DNA of 55,932 nucleotides, from contig JADFHF010000024.1 in NCBI GenBank assembly GCA_022567305.1, positions 1 through 55,932 on the forward strand. Reading direction: 5' to 3'. The position numbers and the translations under genes are program-made. How positions within the stretch are numbered: position 1 is the stretch's first letter; every line of letters begins with the position of its first letter. This stretch comes from Bacteroidota bacterium (GTDB lineage: Bacteria; Bacteroidota; Rhodothermia; Rhodothermales; UBA10348). Below the pieces are notes generated by a model, which did no database searches, was not told where the DNA came from, and saw only the letters and a program-made list of their open reading frames with translations. This document shows positions 4,771 through 55,931 of this stretch, in pieces.

Positions 4771-6747
4771 CTATTGATCCTTTAGCGAATCGTCGATTAG
4801 TCGTGCAGCGATGCGTCCAAAATCAGTTTCCGTGACAATGCCAACCAGTTGTTCGCCTCGAATGACCGGGAGAGCCCCAATTCCGTTATCGCGCATTTTC
4901 TGAATCGCTACCTTGGTGGGCGTTTCAGGTGTAATGGATATCGGGTCCCGAATCATGATGTCTTTTACGGGTCGTTCGGCTTTGTCACGGGCAACCTGTT
5001 GAGCCGCCATAAAACGGAGAATCATTCGGTTAGTGACCAGACCCACCAGGCGGTGTTGTTCATCTTCGACCAGTACGTGTCGAATCCGACGCCAATCCAT
5101 GAGTACCGCCACGAAATCAATCAACTCATCTTCATGAACCGTAAAAAGGTCGGTTGACATGAAGTGTTCGACCCGTGTTGATGGAACTCTCAAAAGAGAA
5201 TCGTGGGCTTTGTGCGCGAGCTCCCAGGTATGACCGGGCTTCTTGTCCAGTTGATTCGCCAGCATGGTGAGGACCAGCGTGTCGAGTCGCTCGGCTCGTG
5301 TACTTCCCTCTTCTTTCATGAGCGCCAGAGAGTCCAACTGCCACTGAGATCCTGTCATTCTCGAAGACACTCGTTCTTCAATAAGACCTAAATATGTGTC
5401 GATGTCTGACGAATCGATGCCGGCATTCTCCAATCCTTCTCTGGATACCGCGATCAACTTCTTTCTGATCAAATCGCCGACCGGCCATCGCTTTCCATCG
5501 ATCCACTCTATTTCAGAGGCCATACCCTGCCGCGCGACCGTCACAAAATTGTTCTTCGCCGCATCGAAAGGGAGTAACGGCTTAATATCATCGTGCCGGT
5601 GGGCAATCCCGAGAACCAATCCAAACCAGAAGGTAGCATTGGCTACCTCATCCATTACGCTCGGTCCTGCAGGCAAAATCCGATTCTCGATTCTCAAGTG
5701 GGGCTTTCCATCCGTAACTCCGTAACACGCTCTGTTCCAACGATATACGGTACCGTTATGCAGTTGAAGTGCAGAGAGTTGTGGCACGCCGCCTCGGCGC
5801 AGCACGTCAAAAGCATCGTCAAATTCTTTGCTGATGATCATCCGAAAACGAGCGATATCCTCCTTGTACAGTTCGGTCACCGACGACTGTACCCACTCGG
5901 AGCCAAAATGAACCCTCGGACTCATGTCCCTTAAGTACAGGTTGCTGCTTCTCGTATCGAGGGCCTGCTGAAAAAGTGCGATCCGCGTTTCGCGCCAGAG
6001 ACGTTTGCCGAATAATATTGGAGAATTGGTCGCGGACGACAACACCGGAGCAGCGATCAGCTGCGCGATGTTATAGAAATGGGCGAACTCGTCTGGCGTG
6101 ACCTGAAAATGGGTCTGAAAACTGGTGTTGCAGCCCTCCACCATGATGTTTTCGTGCTGGAAAAAAAGCTCGTCTACCCCTCGTATTTGGTACTGGGCGG
6201 TGCCCCCCATCAGCTCCATGATGGCATCATTCAGTGCGAAGTAGCGCGCATGTGGAGCCATATTTTCAATTCGAAGGTCGTATTCGTGGATGGTCGGCAA
6301 TATTCCCGCCATTACGACGTGAGCCCGATCCTCGGCCGCCAGATCTCTCACGTCTCCAAGCACGTCTTCTATCTGACCCTGGAGCCGAGAAAGACACTTC
6401 CCCTCAAACACGCACGGGTCGAGATTGAATTCAAGATTGAACCGGGTCAGTTCGCTGACGAGTCGCGGATCCTGATTACGCTCCAAGACTTCCTCCGCAA
6501 TCGGGGCCGGTTGATATCGTTCGTCGACGAGAAAGAGTTCTTGCTCGGCTCCTATTCGCCGCACGTCGGTCTCAAACATGCCCTCCTGAAGCATGTGCTC
6601 CATGGCACGCACGTCGTTAATAACCTGACGCGTAAATCGGCGCATGGCGCCGGGGGCTTGTTTCTGCCGAACGTCTTGCTCTCCCATAGGAATGACCCGG
6701 TCGTTTCCGATGTGTTGTGAGATACAAACAGGTGGATTCTCACTCAC
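4771..6747 (-). CDS. Glutamate-cysteine-ligase-like protein fused to a CBS pair
   Basis: A 658-residue two-part protein. The first ~510 residues belong to the GCS2/GshA-like carboxylate-amine ligase group: GAEQELFLVD near the start (ATP and metal site), NTSFQTHFQV, and LRIENRILPAGPS. The last ~130 residues form two CBS motifs (FMSTDLFTVHEDE... VGLVTNR and IMIRDPISITPET... VGIVTETDFG), which bind adenine nucleotides in other proteins. So a peptide-bond-forming or ligase enzyme may be controlled by AMP/ATP or a similar ligand. Start is GTG at 6747 with a GAGGG site; an ATG at 6687 is the alternative. It is divergent from the TPR gene. True glutamate-cysteine ligase activity is not certain. Confidence 0.8.
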   Translation of the reverse strand: MSENPPVCISQHIGNDRVIPMGEQDVRQKQAPGAMRRFTRQVINDVRAMEHMLQEGMFETDVRRIGAEQELFLVDERYQPAPIAEEVLERNQDPRLVSELTRFNLEFNLDPCVFEGKCLSRLQGQIEDVLGDVRDLAAEDRAHVVMAGILPTIHEYDLRIENMAPHARYFALNDAIMELMGGTAQYQIRGVDELFFQHENIMVEGCNTSFQTHFQVTPDEFAHFYNIAQLIAAPVLSSATNSPILFGKRLWRETRIALFQQALDTRSSNLYLRDMSPRVHFGSEWVQSSVTELYKEDIARFRMIISKEFDDAFDVLRRGGVPQLSALQLHNGTVYRWNRACYGVTDGKPHLRIENRILPAGPSVMDEVANATFWFGLVLGIAHRHDDIKPLLPFDAAKNNFVTVARQGMASEIEWIDGKRWPVGDLIRKKLIAVSREGLENAGIDSSDIDTYLGLIEERVSSRMTGSQWQLDSLALMKEEGSTRAERLDTLVLTMLANQLDKKPGHTWELAHKAHDSLLRVPSTRVEHFMSTDLFTVHEDELIDFVAVLMDWRRIRHVLVEDEQHRLVGLVTNRMILRFMAAQQVARDKAERPVKDIMIRDPISITPETPTKVAIQKMRDNGIGALPVIRGEQLVGIVTETDFGRIAARLIDDSLKDQ

Positions 6748-49847: not shown

Positions 49848-50558
49848 TTAGTCGGCGTGGCCGTCTTTGTTGTTGTCCTTGAAAATACGGAACGACTCAC
49901 GGATAGACTGATCGATCCTGCTTGTGTTTGAGGCGCTATCATCAGTAGGGTCCAGTTCATTTCCGTCATCGTCCATAAACCAGGTTGATACATCAACAAG
50001 CAGAGTAACTTTGACATCGACCATGGTTTCATCGATGACCAGGTCCTCTTCAAAATCTACCTGTTGCTGCATCGACTTTGACGAGCGATACTGGAATGGA
50101 AAACCGTCGAGCATCCCGTCAACGATTACTGAGAATCGCTCATTTCCACTTTCCCCTATCTTGAAATCTGAATCAGGGGGAGTCTCACCGTCCTCTGGTT
50201 TATGTATCCTAAACGATACTTTGTGATAGGTGCCGAACGGAATTTCAGCGACGGTTAGCTCAATCGGCATACCATTTAAATCCAATACCGCTACCAACGG
50301 ATCAGAACGGAATTCGACACCCTCTGTCTCTTCGTCTAAATCTCTAGCATGAAACTGTATGGTCCTCAGTAAAACCTTGGCCGCTGTTACTTCTGCGGTC
50401 GAACTAGCACTCTTTGCCGCGGGTCCAGAATTTACAGCCATAATACTCAGCGTCACTCGGACGGTATCGTCTGAACCCACGCCTTGAGAATCACATCCGG
50501 CAAAAACAGTAAAAACTACAACGGCAACAATCGTAAGTAGCGTCTTGGACAACTTCAT
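49848..50558 (-). CDS. Lipoprotein, DUF4382-like shape
   Basis: 236 residues with signal sequence and lipobox VFAGC (C22). The mature part has beta-rich segments of the kind seen in DUF4382-like secreted proteins (TVRVTLSIMAVN, AAKVLLRTIQFHA, VAVLDLNGMPIELTVAEIPFGTYHKVSFRIH), then a conserved late strand VDVKVTLLVDVSTWF. The end, FKDNNKDGHAD, looks like a calcium-binding EF-hand/dockerin-style loop. It follows the polyketide synthase in the same direction after 234 bases. No function is known. Confidence 0.75.
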   Translation of the reverse strand: MKLSKTLLTIVAVVVFTVFAGCDSQGVGSDDTVRVTLSIMAVNSGPAAKSASSTAEVTAAKVLLRTIQFHARDLDEETEGVEFRSDPLVAVLDLNGMPIELTVAEIPFGTYHKVSFRIHKPEDGETPPDSDFKIGESGNERFSVIVDGMLDGFPFQYRSSKSMQQQVDFEEDLVIDETMVDVKVTLLVDVSTWFMDDDGNELDPTDDSASNTSRIDQSIRESFRIFKDNNKDGHAD

Positions 50559-50792: not shown

Positions 50793-53700
50793 TCAGTTTT
50801 TAGTCAGGCGTAAGATCTTTTTCACTGCCTTCGCTAATTTGGCAATAGTAGATTGCCCAAAAAAGATAGTGGGGCTTATGCGGGCGCCGAGATGAGCTCG
50901 TATTCGGGTCATTATTTGGATGGCTGATATGGAATCTCCTCCCAAATCCCAGAAATCGTCGTCAACGCCTATTTGATCTATCCCCAGAATCTTGATCCAG
51001 ATCTCGGCGAGTTTTTCTTCGATCTCGTTTGAGGGTGCTCTATAGTCGACGAGTGATGAACGCTGAATGGTAACTTTCTCTACGTCTTCAAGGTCGGGAG
51101 CATGGCGCACGAAGTTGCTCATATCCCATGCTCGCGGTGTGCACACGACATGTGCTGATCCTCCCGCATCAGTTAGTAACTCCTGAAAGATATCGAGGCC
51201 CTGTTGAAGAGGAATCAGCAAGCTTTCTTCCTTCGATACCATTTCCAATTCGCGAAACTGTTTCAACGCGTCTGACATTACAAGAACAACTTTGCCAATA
51301 TGACGAGCTGAAGCCATATGCTCGAATGCCTGGGTAGCCCTCTCCCAGGGCACCGACAAGGTCGGGTTCGGTTTCAGGGTTCCGTCTTCGAATCTGGCCA
51401 CTAGCTCCGTAAGCATTCGAGTAATCAACGGATGTTTATTTTGGATGAGTGGCTCTAAATCAATGGCGTGGAATGTCAGATTCTTTCGGAAAGGGAACAG
51501 TCCAATCTTGAAATCAGAGTAGATATCTCGTTTCCCGATCTCCAAAAATCGACCCATAGGTCTCAACAGATCAAGACCGGCCAGGAGGAATTCACCGGCT
51601 AGCGAGTTTAGAACTACATCAACGCCCGAGTCGTCCGTAATCTCCTTGATGGAACTCGCGAATTTGAGTGACCTGGAGTCCATGACATGTTCAACACCGA
51701 GATCAGAAAGGTACGCTCGTTTCTTCTCTGACCCAGCAGTGGCGTAGATTTCGGCTCCAAGGTATTGCGCTAGCTGTATGGCAGCAAGGCCAACACCACC
51801 GGTCGCGGCATGAATCAATATTCGTTCTCCTTCTGCCAGATGCCCTAAATGGTTGAGTGCATACTCTGCCGTGAGATAGGCGATTGGAACACCTGCAGCT
51901 TCTTCGAACGAAAGATTAGCGGGCTTATGTACTACGAGACGGGCATCTACATTAGTTCGCGAGGCCGCCGCGCCCCTGGCAACAGCGATAACTTCGTCGC
52001 CGACTTCGAACCCCTCTACGTTTTTTCCGAGCTCAAGAATTCGGCCTGAACACTCTCCGCCAATCATCGCCGAGCTGTCTTCGTTACCAGGAAGCGCTCC
52101 AAGAGCGAAGAGAATATCGCGAAAGTTGAGTCCTGCGGCAAACACCTCAATCTGCACTTCATCGTCGGCGAGTTGGGCAATTTCGTGGCCAACAATAGCT
52201 ATGGTATCTAAATCACCAAACTCGCCGATCAACAGTCTTTTATCTGAAGAACTCTCTTCAGATTCATCTACGTCTGGGAGTACCACCAGGAGATAATTGT
52301 CAACTTCGACTGCGATGTTACCTTTTTCGTCACAAAGAGCAATGTTTACGGATCCATCACCCTCCGGTACATCTGTTACTACCGCCGTCACGATTAACGG
52401 TAGGCGATCGTAGACCCTAATATCACCAATGGTTGAAGGTACCCCCTGCTCATTCACGCGCTGTTGGGGCACATACCCGGTCGCCTGGTCCATAATGGCA
52501 GGATGGATGACGTAATTCGAGTTCTCAGACCGGAGATCATCACTTAATCCCAATTGGAGAATCGTCGCACCGTGCCATTCGGCCGTGCCACGTAGGGATA
52601 GAAAATGTGGGGAGTTCCGATAACGGTCAGGAATGCTTGGATCTTCGAACTTAAGGTCGGGAATAGGAATCGGAGTGGGACTCGATCCTTCCAGACTAGA
52701 TGCAGTACATGTACTATGAAGCGGCAAATCCTCAAACCGCTTCATCGTCTCTCCAATCGGGCGAGAGCGCATTTCAAAGTATGTCTGCGGTCCGTCTTCC
52801 GTTGCAATAAGCCAAATCTCTGTTCCTTCCTCGTGAGGTTGAAGGAGGCGAAGAAAACCCACGTTACTGAGTACAATAGGATTGTCGGAATTTAGCAGAT
52901 GCTGATAGGCGGCATGAAACATCTCTAGCATTCCCGTTCCAGGCATAGTCGGTACACCCTGAATCGTGTGTTCCGCGACGATCCAGTCGTCTGGACTAAT
53001 TCGACCTCTGAAGAGCGTCCGTTCTGGTTCTCTTTGGCAGTACTGTAGAAGCGGATGATCCACCGTTTCAGAATAGGGACCTCGGGATATGTCCGGGATG
53101 GATCCCTGACCCCAATAATTGTCGACCATCATGCCGACTTCATTCCAACCACTCCAGCTGATAGAGCGTACTCTTCCCCAATTAGTTCGGTCACGCTTGC
53201 AGGCAAAAGCATCCAAAACCGCGTTTGCGCTGGCGTATGCGGTTTGGCCGGGTTGTGGCGACACGCTTGCGATTGAAGAGAAATTGAAAAAGAAATCCAG
53301 CGGATCGTCGCAAAGTAAATTTTCGAGGATGAAAGCGCCTTCCACCTTTGCACCGAATACCTTGGCTGTAGTTTCCCGATTCATTTGCAGCACCAACTCT
53401 GGTGACACGATTCCCGCGGCGTGAACTACACCATTCAAATCTCCGAAATGAGCCCGTACTTCTTGAACAACACGAGCCATGTCGTTCGCGCTCGTGCAAT
53501 CACCCTCAACCAGCAAAACATCGGCTCCCTTCTCTCTAAGTGCCGTAATTTTGTTGAGCGCTTTTCCGACTCGGTCATTCTCCGCAGCTCGGGAAACCCA
53601 TTCCTCCGCTGGAGGTGGTTCCCAACGGGTTAGAAGCGCTAGCCGCATTTCGGCCATTTCGAAAAGCCTTCCTGCTACCGCAAGCCCCAGACCGCCCGCG

Positions 53701-55931
53701 CCACCTGTGATCAACGTAACGGCCTTCCGCCGAAAGCCTACATTTTCACCCGAGTGTGTTGCCAATCGGAAGTACTCCGTAAACCGTCCTGATTTTCGAA
53801 GAACTAATCGGGATTCACTCTGTGGTTGACAAACCTCCGCGACAAGCGCTTGTACCAGATGTTCAATATCCGACGAGACGGTCGGGATGTCGATTATCTG
53901 GAATGAAAGAGAAGGAATCTCCTTGGGTATTACCCGGCATGGGCCTATGAGCAAGGATTTCTCTATACATAGCGGCCCGTCTTCGTCACTCAAGAGCGAT
54001 AATCCATTTGCCGCCACCGTAACGTGCACGTTCTCTTCAACACCAAATTCCTCAAGCGCACGTGCCAATGAAACCAGCGTATCAAATCCCGGGGCAAGGC
54101 ATTGATGATACCGTTCGAGTACGTCCGTCTTGACTGAATCACCAGTCATCTGCCACAAGTGTAGAACCCGCTGTGGATGCCATCCCTGTTTCGAGACCTC
54201 GCGAAAAACGCCGATCAAATCTTCCATCTCTCCAGGCCTCACCTCAAATCGATCACGTTCCAACTTCCTTAGCTCGCTGCCTGCGATCAGCGAAATGACA
54301 TGAATGTTTTGGTTGCGGAGAGTCTTAAGGACCTGATCAGACCAACCAGTCTTATCTTCAAACACCAGCCATTCTTCTTCCCGTGAAGGCGAAGCCGTCC
54401 GCAATTCCTCCCGGTGCCAGAAAGGTTCGTACAGCCAATCGTCGTTCTCCGTACGGATCGAATCAGCAGTCTCTGGGCGTATCGCACCAACTGCACCGTT
54501 ACCACCGGGTATATAGACAGGTGGTTCTATCCAATAATTTTGTTCTTCAAACGGATACGTTGGAAGCGTAACTTTATGCCGTTCGTCAGCTCGTCCAGGC
54601 AGCTTCCCAACCTCATTCCAGTCGAGAGCGACACCTTCGACCCAGATGCGGGACAAGGCGTCATACAATACATTTGAGTCCGCAGGAGAATCGTACATAT
54701 CTGACACAATCGCCGCACCCTCACGTTGCCGTTTGATAAGACTTGAAAGCGCGTGACCCGGGCCGACTTCAATCCAAACTGGATTATCAATTTCGTCCAG
54801 CGATGCGATACCGTCTCCAAAACGAACCGGTTTTCGGATGTGTTGACCCCAATAAGCTGGATCTGTAGCCTGTTCTTCTGTAATAAACTTCCCCGATACG
54901 TTTGAAATAAAGGGGATCTGAGGTGCCTTGCGGTCTATTTTCGAAACAGCCTCTATAAACGGCACCACGGCCGGCTCCATGGCGGCAGAATGAAATCCAT
55001 GTGAGGTTTTCAACACTTGGAAGTCAAGCTCCTCAGTTTCAAGACGCTTCGTTAGGTTCTCAATCGCAGCGATGGAACCAGATACGACAGTAATATCAGG
55101 AGCGTTTACAGTGGCAATTTCAAGGTCAACATCGAGAAACGCCTTCGTGTCATCCTCAGATAAAAACAGTGCTATCATAGCGCCTGGATTACAGGCCTGC
55201 ATCAGTTCGCCTCTTTGAGCCGCCAAATGCAATGCGTCCCCTAAATCAAAGACACCAGCCAAGCAGGCCGCCACTAGCTCACCGGCAGAATGACCGATCA
55301 TTGCAGAAGGATGAATACCCGCCGTCATCAGTCTCCGGGCCCAAGCATATTCGGTTACAAATAACGCTTGTTGGGCGATCGCCGTTTGGCGAAGTTTCTG
55401 AGCCGAATCATCGTCATCTCCATGCATTATCTGGCGAATGTCGAATCCACAATGTGCGGCTAGCAGTTCGGCACAGTGATCTACGTCCTTTCGGTAATCA
55501 GGGTCTTCTTTGTAAAGCGCATGTCCCATACCCGGTCTCTGACTACCCTGACCTGGAAATGCAAAAATTACAGAGCGGTTCGGAGATCCGATCCCTTCAT
55601 GGAACTTGCCCGCGCTCAACTTCTCTTTGAGTTCATCTGAACTGGAAGCGACCAGCGCTACACGATGGTCGAATGTTTTTCGTCCGATTTGAAGCGTGTG
55701 AGCAATGTCGTCGAGGCGCAATTCAGTATGAGCCTCGACATGATCTGACAAGTTTGCGACCTGTTTTTTTAGTCCTGCTGGAGTTCGAGCGGAGAGGACA
55801 ACGAGCGAGCGCTGAGTAAACGGATCTCGAACAGGCATCTGGGGCGGTTCCTCTAATACAACGTGCGCATTATTCCCACCAAAACCGAAAGCGGATACCC
55901 CTGCTCTGCGCGGATGTCCGTTTGAATTCCA
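50793..55931 (-). CDS. Type I polyketide synthase, KS(partial)-AT-KR-DH-ER-carrier
   Basis: Runs off the right edge. The last 31 codons read before the edge end a ketosynthase (RRAGVSAFGFGGNNAHVVLE). Counting from the internal Met at 55838: an acyltransferase at ~90-435 with GHSAGE (S184) and HGFHS (280-284), which suggests malonyl-CoA; a KR-like region at ~470-900 with TGGAGGLG, S854, Y868, N872; a DH at ~925-1190 with H957 in HTIQGVPTMP and D1117; an ER at ~1205-1520 with NFRD and AATGGVGLAA; and a carrier at ~1603-1675 with GGDS (S1636). A normal module has DH-ER before KR, so this order is odd. No thioesterase is present. Product unknown; the rest of the cluster lies beyond 55932. Confidence 0.93.
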   Translation of the reverse strand, partial: WNSNGHPRRAGVSAFGFGGNNAHVVLEEPPQMPVRDPFTQRSLVVLSARTPAGLKKQVANLSDHVEAHTELRLDDIAHTLQIGRKTFDHRVALVASSSDELKEKLSAGKFHEGIGSPNRSVIFAFPGQGSQRPGMGHALYKEDPDYRKDVDHCAELLAAHCGFDIRQIMHGDDDDSAQKLRQTAIAQQALFVTEYAWARRLMTAGIHPSAMIGHSAGELVAACLAGVFDLGDALHLAAQRGELMQACNPGAMIALFLSEDDTKAFLDVDLEIATVNAPDITVVSGSIAAIENLTKRLETEELDFQVLKTSHGFHSAAMEPAVVPFIEAVSKIDRKAPQIPFISNVSGKFITEEQATDPAYWGQHIRKPVRFGDGIASLDEIDNPVWIEVGPGHALSSLIKRQREGAAIVSDMYDSPADSNVLYDALSRIWVEGVALDWNEVGKLPGRADERHKVTLPTYPFEEQNYWIEPPVYIPGGNGAVGAIRPETADSIRTENDDWLYEPFWHREELRTASPSREEEWLVFEDKTGWSDQVLKTLRNQNIHVISLIAGSELRKLERDRFEVRPGEMEDLIGVFREVSKQGWHPQRVLHLWQMTGDSVKTDVLERYHQCLAPGFDTLVSLARALEEFGVEENVHVTVAANGLSLLSDEDGPLCIEKSLLIGPCRVIPKEIPSLSFQIIDIPTVSSDIEHLVQALVAEVCQPQSESRLVLRKSGRFTEYFRLATHSGENVGFRRKAVTLITGGAGGLGLAVAGRLFEMAEMRLALLTRWEPPPAEEWVSRAAENDRVGKALNKITALREKGADVLLVEGDCTSANDMARVVQEVRAHFGDLNGVVHAAGIVSPELVLQMNRETTAKVFGAKVEGAFILENLLCDDPLDFFFNFSSIASVSPQPGQTAYASANAVLDAFACKRDRTNWGRVRSISWSGWNEVGMMVDNYWGQGSIPDISRGPYSETVDHPLLQYCQREPERTLFRGRISPDDWIVAEHTIQGVPTMPGTGMLEMFHAAYQHLLNSDNPIVLSNVGFLRLLQPHEEGTEIWLIATEDGPQTYFEMRSRPIGETMKRFEDLPLHSTCTASSLEGSSPTPIPIPDLKFEDPSIPDRYRNSPHFLSLRGTAEWHGATILQLGLSDDLRSENSNYVIHPAIMDQATGYVPQQRVNEQGVPSTIGDIRVYDRLPLIVTAVVTDVPEGDGSVNIALCDEKGNIAVEVDNYLLVVLPDVDESEESSSDKRLLIGEFGDLDTIAIVGHEIAQLADDEVQIEVFAAGLNFRDILFALGALPGNEDSSAMIGGECSGRILELGKNVEGFEVGDEVIAVARGAAASRTNVDARLVVHKPANLSFEEAAGVPIAYLTAEYALNHLGHLAEGERILIHAATGGVGLAAIQLAQYLGAEIYATAGSEKKRAYLSDLGVEHVMDSRSLKFASSIKEITDDSGVDVVLNSLAGEFLLAGLDLLRPMGRFLEIGKRDIYSDFKIGLFPFRKNLTFHAIDLEPLIQNKHPLITRMLTELVARFEDGTLKPNPTLSVPWERATQAFEHMASARHIGKVVLVMSDALKQFRELEMVSKEESLLIPLQQGLDIFQELLTDAGGSAHVVCTPRAWDMSNFVRHAPDLEDVEKVTIQRSSLVDYRAPSNEIEEKLAEIWIKILGIDQIGVDDDFWDLGGDSISAIQIMTRIRAHLGARISPTIFFGQSTIAKLAKAVKKILRLTKN

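What the first reader, a model, noticed from the sequence alone, without database searches (positions are those of the whole stretch)
50793..55931. Polyketide synthase module with KR ahead of DH and ER
Seen in sequence: the catalytic KR motif (TGGAGGLG, S854, Y868) precedes the DH motif (H957, D1117), which precedes the ER (AATGGVGLAA); the carrier is last. In the usual reducing modules DH and ER lie before KR. The DH also has DQATG where DxxxQ/H is usual. Inference: a rearranged module whose domains may act in a different spatial order, or a distinct iterative lineage.
Basis: partly seen in the sequence, partly recalled or inferred. Interest (0 to 1): 0.75.

Follow-up and report, generated by a model that had tools for sequence, protein, structure and literature searches.

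The report
Polyketide synthase module, KR-first domain order
This is the end of a bacterial enzyme assembly line for fatty-acid-like molecules; its reducing parts do come in an unusual order, but the same order is already known from other assembly lines, so it is a new member of a known, less common type.

Summary
On the minus strand (50793-55931), cut by the contig end inside the KS, a 1712-residue frame reads KS tail-AT-KR-DH-ER-ACP, with one KR. The order is not unique. Pfam gives it in two Chroococcidiopsis proteins, a Streptomyces clavuligerus hybrid (C-A-T-KS-AT-KR-DH-ER-ACP) and an unnamed Pseudomonadota genome. Published precedents: ClbB of colibactin, KS-AT-KR-DH-ER-T, credited with a reduced 4-aminopentanoic residue, and dinoflagellate A-PP-KS-KR-DH-ER-PP-TE proteins. 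It is not a one-off shuffle: in a tree of AT+KR+DH, 17 KR-first proteins separate from 10 DH-first ones at 100/100. The odd DQATG is the KR-first norm: Q/H four after the catalytic Asp in 0 of 19 KR-first DHs, against 12 of 12 DH-first. Most likely it is an ordinary non-iterative, fully reducing, malonyl-type module of an NRPS/PKS hybrid line (activity inferred). The structure prediction failed.

The parts
50793..55931 (-). PKS gene, 5' end cut off by the contig end (1712 residues + stop)
55611..55931 (-). C-terminal tail of the KS and KS-AT linker (residues 1-107); KS body missing
   Evidence: Pfam KAsynt_C_assoc, CurL-like_PKS_C, RhiE-like_linker; coordinates
54747..55565 (-). AT (residues 123-395), GHSAG and SHGFH motifs (malonyl type by recalled motif rule)
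   Evidence: PF00698 4e-46; motifs
53841..54371 (-). KR structural half (Beta-ketacyl_N, residues 521-697), directly before the catalytic half
   Evidence: PF21394 3e-08
53142..53720 (-). KR catalytic half (residues 738-930): TGGAGGLG, S885, Y899, N903
   Evidence: PF08659 2e-42; motif positions
52269..53057 (-). DH (residues 959-1221): H988, D1148, HPAIMDQATG
   Evidence: PF21089 1.7e-13, PF14765 1.5e-05
51276..52229 (-). ER (about residues 1235-1552): AATGGVGLAA nucleotide-binding motif
   Evidence: PF13602, PF00107, PF08240
50823..51017 (-). ACP/PCP-like carrier (residues 1639-1703), LGGDSI
   Evidence: PF00550 1.6e-16

Best explanation
The gene encodes one cis-AT, fully reducing extension module, most likely KS-AT-KR-DH-ER-ACP, of a hybrid NRPS/PKS line. 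It belongs to a KR-first lineage of modules in which the intact KR (structural plus catalytic half) follows the AT, the DH follows the KR, and in some members an ER sits between DH and carrier. Inferred working: the AT loads malonyl-CoA, the KS condenses it onto a chain from an upstream (probably NRPS) module, and the tethered carrier visits KR, DH and ER in chemical order, giving a saturated two-carbon extension. Primary order does not set reaction order. With no TE at the C-terminus, the chain is passed to, or released by, another protein. Shown: domain content, order, conserved catalytic residues, lineage. Inferred: activity, substrate, partners, single use.
For: Pfam order. Same order by Pfam in L041 x2 (Chroococcidiopsis, one with a methyltransferase), L083 (S. 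clavuligerus) and L111 (G631). Collinear tblastn cover of at least 80% of the KR-DH-ER query in 17 of 72,556 plasmid records: 1 Chroococcidiopsis, 16 S. clavuligerus. The ER-less order KS-AT-KR-DH-ACP-TE by Pfam in L012, L013, L040, L042 and by my HMMs in L043, L112, L113, L114, L119. Concatenated tree: 17 KR-first against 10 DH-first, 100/100. DH +4 residue Q/H in 0 of 19 against 12 of 12. NRPS context of the other KR-DH-ER modules; NRPS and an NRPS-PKS in the same genome. ClbB with this order, and isolation of a compound with the 4-aminopentanoic acid residue that the authors assign to it (PMC5490422, passages).
Against: The KS body and everything upstream are off the contig, so KS, NRPS partner and first domain are not seen. 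The next gene downstream encodes a protein with no Pfam match, not a PKS/NRPS partner. The window's DH and KR are on long branches (DH at most 24% identity to any row; KR best identity is to a DH-first KR, 39%), so the DH could be impaired. With PfaA rows added, KR-first KRs form a grade rather than one supported branch, and the DH branch has 92. Most KR-first relatives found lack the ER.
Confidence: 0.82

Rival explanations
1. An iterative KR-first synthase that makes a lipid or polyene chain by repeated use, like PUFA (PfaA) or enediyne (PksE) synthases, which also have KR before DH.
For: Of five KR-bearing PfaA-type proteins fetched here, three read KS-AT-KR-DH by my HMMs; in two no DH was found; one of the three is below the PfaA family cut-off. 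One paper calls the KR-DH pair specific for PksE (PMC9967187, passage).
Against: PfaA rows form their own group in the KR, DH and KS trees (100, 97 and 100) and, by eye, keep Q four after the Asp in the 3 DH sequences printed there; the window has a single carrier, at the C-terminus; the other KR-DH-ER modules are tied to NRPS genes. PksE itself was not placed in a tree.
Confidence: 0.08
2. The order is real but DH and/or ER are degenerate, so the module makes a less reduced product.
For: Weak Pfam score for the second DH half (25.1 against 23.7 bits); Gly instead of Q/H after the catalytic Asp; long DH branch.
Against: Catalytic His and Asp present in the window and in 19 of 19 KR-first DHs; the frame is open; the ER has its nucleotide-binding motif; none of the 19 KR-first DHs has the Q/H.
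Confidence: 0.08
3. A chimera of the assembly has joined pieces of different modules.
For: The genome is in 115 contigs and the gene sits at a contig end.
Against: The same order, collinear over 4-838 of 842 model positions, in a genome of another phylum, and in plasmid records labelled complete.
Confidence: 0.02

Closest known systems
PKS module of ClbB (colibactin pathway)
   Same: KS-AT-KR-DH-ER-T order (PMC5490422, passage); malonyl extension; association with an NRPS module
   Different: ClbB also carries a C-A-T NRPS module; what precedes the KS in the window is unknown. I did not fetch or align ClbB, so common descent is untested
Streptomyces clavuligerus hybrid NRPS/PKS WP_106432074 (L083)
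   Same: KS-AT-KR-DH-ER-ACP; its AT joins the window's AT at 95; LDNAAG at the DH Asp
   Different: C-A-T fused in front; 32% identity over KR-DH-ER
Chroococcidiopsis type I PKS WP_250017948 (L041, 2195 aa)
   Same: KS-AT-KR-DH-ER-ACP and no other catalytic domain found
   Different: member of a cyanobacterial plasmid cluster; DH motif LDSAVG
   Same: KR before DH, no Q/H at +4, same side of the tree
   Different: no ER; C-terminal thioesterase
Dinoflagellate A-PP-KS-KR-DH-ER-PP-TE proteins
   Same: KR-DH-ER order (PMC7159223, passages)
   Different: no AT in that description; adenylation and TE domains; sequences not compared here
Canonical DH-ER-KR modules (e.g. L053, L123)
   Same: same domain families; ER of the same family
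   Different: DH first, ER between the two KR halves (L053), DxxxQ/H motif

Membership tests
KR-first cis-AT PKS modules (KS-AT-KR-DH[-ER]-ACP) | KR before DH in one frame, no second KR after ER | tested here: met
KR-first cis-AT PKS modules (KS-AT-KR-DH[-ER]-ACP) | sequence groups with KR-first, not DH-first, proteins | tested here: met
   AT+KR+DH tree 100/100; DH 100, KR 99; weaker with PfaA rows added
KR-first cis-AT PKS modules (KS-AT-KR-DH[-ER]-ACP) | DxATG-type motif without Q/H at +4 | tested here: met
   0 of 19 KR-first with Q/H, window included; 12 of 12 DH-first with Q/H
ClbB-type NRPS-PKS | NRPS C-A-T module in the same protein | not testable with these tools
   contig ends inside the KS; KS body not found elsewhere
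ClbB-type NRPS-PKS | common descent with ClbB | not tested
   ClbB sequence deliberately not fetched; order taken from passages of PMC5490422
Canonical DH-ER-KR fully reducing module | DH and ER before the KR catalytic half, ER between the KR halves | tested here: not met
PUFA synthase PfaA (TIGR02813) | score over the curated cut-off; carriers between AT and KR | tested here: not met
   155.8 bits against 1010.1 (the window's frame lacks the KS body, which lowers the score); single carrier at the C-terminus; separate in trees
Enediyne synthase PksE | KS-AT-ACP-KR-DH order (recalled), conserved sequence | tested here: inconclusive
   the carrier is last here, unlike the recalled order; no PksE sequence was placed in a tree

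The most novel reading that the evidence does not exclude
KR-first modules are an old, separate line of reducing PKS whose DH works with a different support for the catalytic Asp (DxATG in place of DxxxQ/H), and whose ER was gained or lost more than once at one permissive site between DH and carrier. The DH and ER would then be held in a spatial layout unlike the known DH-ER-KR module.
Probability: 0.35. Interest if true: 0.5.

Novelty: new member of a known kind. Interest (0 to 1): 0.3.

Why it matters
The usual picture of cis-AT modules is DH-ER-KR order with a DxxxQ/H motif (established knowledge), and one paper treats the KR-DH pair as specific for enediyne synthases (PMC9967187, passage). 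The data here argue that KR-DH also marks a broader modular lineage, so KR-DH alone should not be read as enediyne, and a Gly after the Asp should not by itself be read as a dead DH. Modules with the ER between DH and carrier are natural examples of an ER at a second site, which engineers could try.

Tried and rejected
Structure: AlphaFold2 on residues 500-1560 with one relative (2 rows) gave mean pLDDT 35.0, pTM 0.29; nothing is taken from it and no fold search was run.

Missing 5' end: looked for a KS half in the rest of the genome. The full KS on C55 sits in its own KS-AT protein, the one on C73 in a 425-residue frame, and two short partial matches lie in 397- and 420-residue frames; none looked like the missing piece.

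Close relatives: at the E limits used, none of 393 other sampled genomes of the phylum gave a match across KR, DH and ER, by single sequence (limit 1e-40) or by profile (limit 1e-80); the listed matches were to the ER. Two candidates per genome were scored, so these are lower bounds. In Pseudomonadota 1 of 398 did (limit 1e-80). A scan of genome contigs with the whole frame found one relative, Hephaestia, without ER.

One origin of the ER: the five KR-DH-ER ERs as one clade are rejected (AU p 0.004), but not once the Nostoc KR-ER protein is included (p 0.13); on the AT+KR+DH tree the same six proteins as one clade are rejected (p 0.0003). So ER gain or loss happened more than once by that tree; the direction is not settled, the window is a long branch, and trees are midpoint-rooted.

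Papers: 9 searches. 'KS-AT-KR-DH-ER-ACP' had no hit; 'KS-AT-KR-DH' hit 2 papers. The lusichelin paper names 'KR-DH-ER domains' without fixing the order (passage) and the KR-motif paper speaks of a 'KR-DH-ER tridomain' (passage), so neither is counted as a precedent. 'Unusual domain order' passages concern trans-AT systems. I do not claim that the KR-first lineage or DxATG is unpublished; no search was made for the motif.

Full report
What is there. The finding lies on the minus strand. window:50793-55931 holds an open frame of 1712 residues that runs off the contig end; the window is one whole contig of a 115-contig genome. Pfam places, in order, the KS C-terminal extension and KS-AT linker, AT, KR structural half, KR catalytic half, DH, ER and a phosphopantetheine carrier. 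There is one KR. The next gene downstream (49848-50558) has no Pfam match, and none of the 19 other window proteins that I scanned with Pfam is a PKS or NRPS; so in the window the module stands alone, and any partner genes beside it must lie upstream, off the contig.

How it differs from the usual module. In a canonical module of a related genome (L053) the order is DH, KR structural half, ER, KR catalytic half, ACP, so the ER sits between the KR halves. In the window the KR halves are adjacent and DH and ER come after them.

The order recurs. A tblastn with KR-DH-ER covered at least 80% of the query in one place in 17 of 72,556 plasmid records: one Chroococcidiopsis and 16 of S. clavuligerus. 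Pfam confirmed KS-AT-MT-KR-DH-ER-ACP in Chroococcidiopsis, C-A-T-KS-AT-KR-DH-ER-ACP in S. clavuligerus, and a second Chroococcidiopsis protein with KS-AT-KR-DH-ER-ACP. A profile of three such regions found one more among 398 Pseudomonadota genomes (G631), confirmed by Pfam, with an NRPS protein (two carriers, C, A) directly upstream. In the window's own phylum sample, 1 of 394 genomes, its own, had it at the limits used. These are lower bounds, as two candidates per genome were scored. A Nostoc protein has KR then ER with no DH found.

Related ER-less proteins. KS-AT-KR-DH-ACP-TE was found by Pfam in two genomes of the window's order, in Hephaestia, and in Planktothrix (with a sulfotransferase at the end). 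A Streptomyces protein (L044) read KS-AT-KR-DH-ACP and one locus (L054) KS-AT-KR-DH.

Lineage. In single-domain trees the KR-first rows separate from the others: DH 19 rows against 14 at 100; KR 23 rows (three of them KR-only, one KR-ER) against 35 at 99. KS and AT rows of the KR-first proteins also fall together, along with KS-AT and KS-AT-KR proteins (KS 24 rows at 100, AT 25 rows at 99); the window has no KS row. On AT+KR+DH joined, 17 KR-first rows (one lacks DH) separate from 10 others at 100/100. Against this: with PfaA rows added the KR-first KRs become a grade, and the DH-tree support is 92. The window is a long branch in the DH, KR and joined trees, and trees are midpoint-rooted. Rows left out: identical sequences, domains too short in cut loci, and the rows with no KR and the extra DH-first KRs (10 of 35 kept).

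The DQATG motif. Four residues after the catalytic Asp there is Q or H in 12 of 12 DH-first DHs (8 Q, 4 H), and in 2 of 2 DHs of loci cut before a KR. It is G in 15, S in 2, A in 1 and Y in 1 of 19 KR-first DHs; Thr stands at +3 in 16 of 19. The Asp is present in 19 of 19 and the His in 19 of 19 (in DH-first rows His in 11 of 12, one row being cut there). So the window's DQATG is the lineage norm. Whether Thr or another group supports the Asp is inference.

PUFA synthases. PfaA also has KR before DH. Five KR-bearing PfaA-type proteins were fetched; in three my HMMs found the DH after the KR, in two they did not; one of the three (L141) is below the PfaA family cut-off. In KR, DH and KS trees these rows form their own group, so the shared order does not make the window a PUFA synthase; its TIGR02813 score is 155.8 bits against a cut-off of 1010.1, with the caveat that the KS body is missing.

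The ER. KR-first ERs belong with ERs of PKS modules, apart from ten stand-alone reductases (99). The window's ER does not join the four other KR-DH-ER ERs; it is weakly next to ERs of two Streptomyces DH-first modules (81). On the AT+KR+DH tree one clade of all six ER-bearing KR-first rows is rejected (p 0.0003). This fits ER gain or loss more than once.

Function. AT has GHSAG and HGFH; by the recalled rule the latter points to malonyl-CoA (the lusichelin paper cites a similar HAFH as malonyl-specific; passage). KR, DH and ER motifs are present, the carrier is last, and no TE was found. The same genome has NRPS proteins on contig C100 and a formyltransferase-C-A-T-KS-AT-T protein on C55; whether they work with this module is unknown. 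For ClbB, with this order, the paper reports one malonyl extension with beta-carbon processing as the reading that its isolated compound, with a 4-aminopentanoic acid residue, supports (passages only). So a KR-DH-ER order is compatible with full reduction. I therefore read the window's protein as an ordinary fully reducing extension module in a minority layout. Activity, substrate and partners are inference.

Verdict. New member of a known kind; the lineage-wide DH motif and the repeated ER placement are the parts worth following.

Noticed in passing
G000:C55, L059:5237-11845 (+); G000:C100, L060: The same genome has a formyltransferase-C-A-T-KS-AT-T hybrid protein on C55, and A-T and C-A-T NRPS proteins on C100.
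   Followed up: partly
L043 (Ruegeria conchae plasmid): A KS-AT-KR-DH-ACP-TE protein sits in a row with exosortase xrtD, rfb sugar genes and glycosyltransferase genes, close to a MupA/Atu3671 luciferase-like monooxygenase protein and a phosphopantetheinyl transferase.
   Followed up: no
L122:4401-11075 (Nostoc plasmid): KS-AT-KR-ER-ACP-TE with no DH found between KR and ER; an ER without DH would have no enoyl substrate made in cis.
   Followed up: partly
L042:10759-18288 (Planktothrix plasmid): KS-AT-KR-DH-ACP-TE followed by a sulfotransferase domain in one protein.
   Followed up: no
window 49848-50558 (-): 236-residue protein with an N-terminal hydrophobic stretch ending in a Cys (lipoprotein-like by eye), no Pfam match, same strand just downstream of the PKS.
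   Followed up: no
window 4771-6747 (-): 658-residue protein with a glutamate-cysteine-ligase-like region (weak match) and two CBS domains.
   Followed up: no
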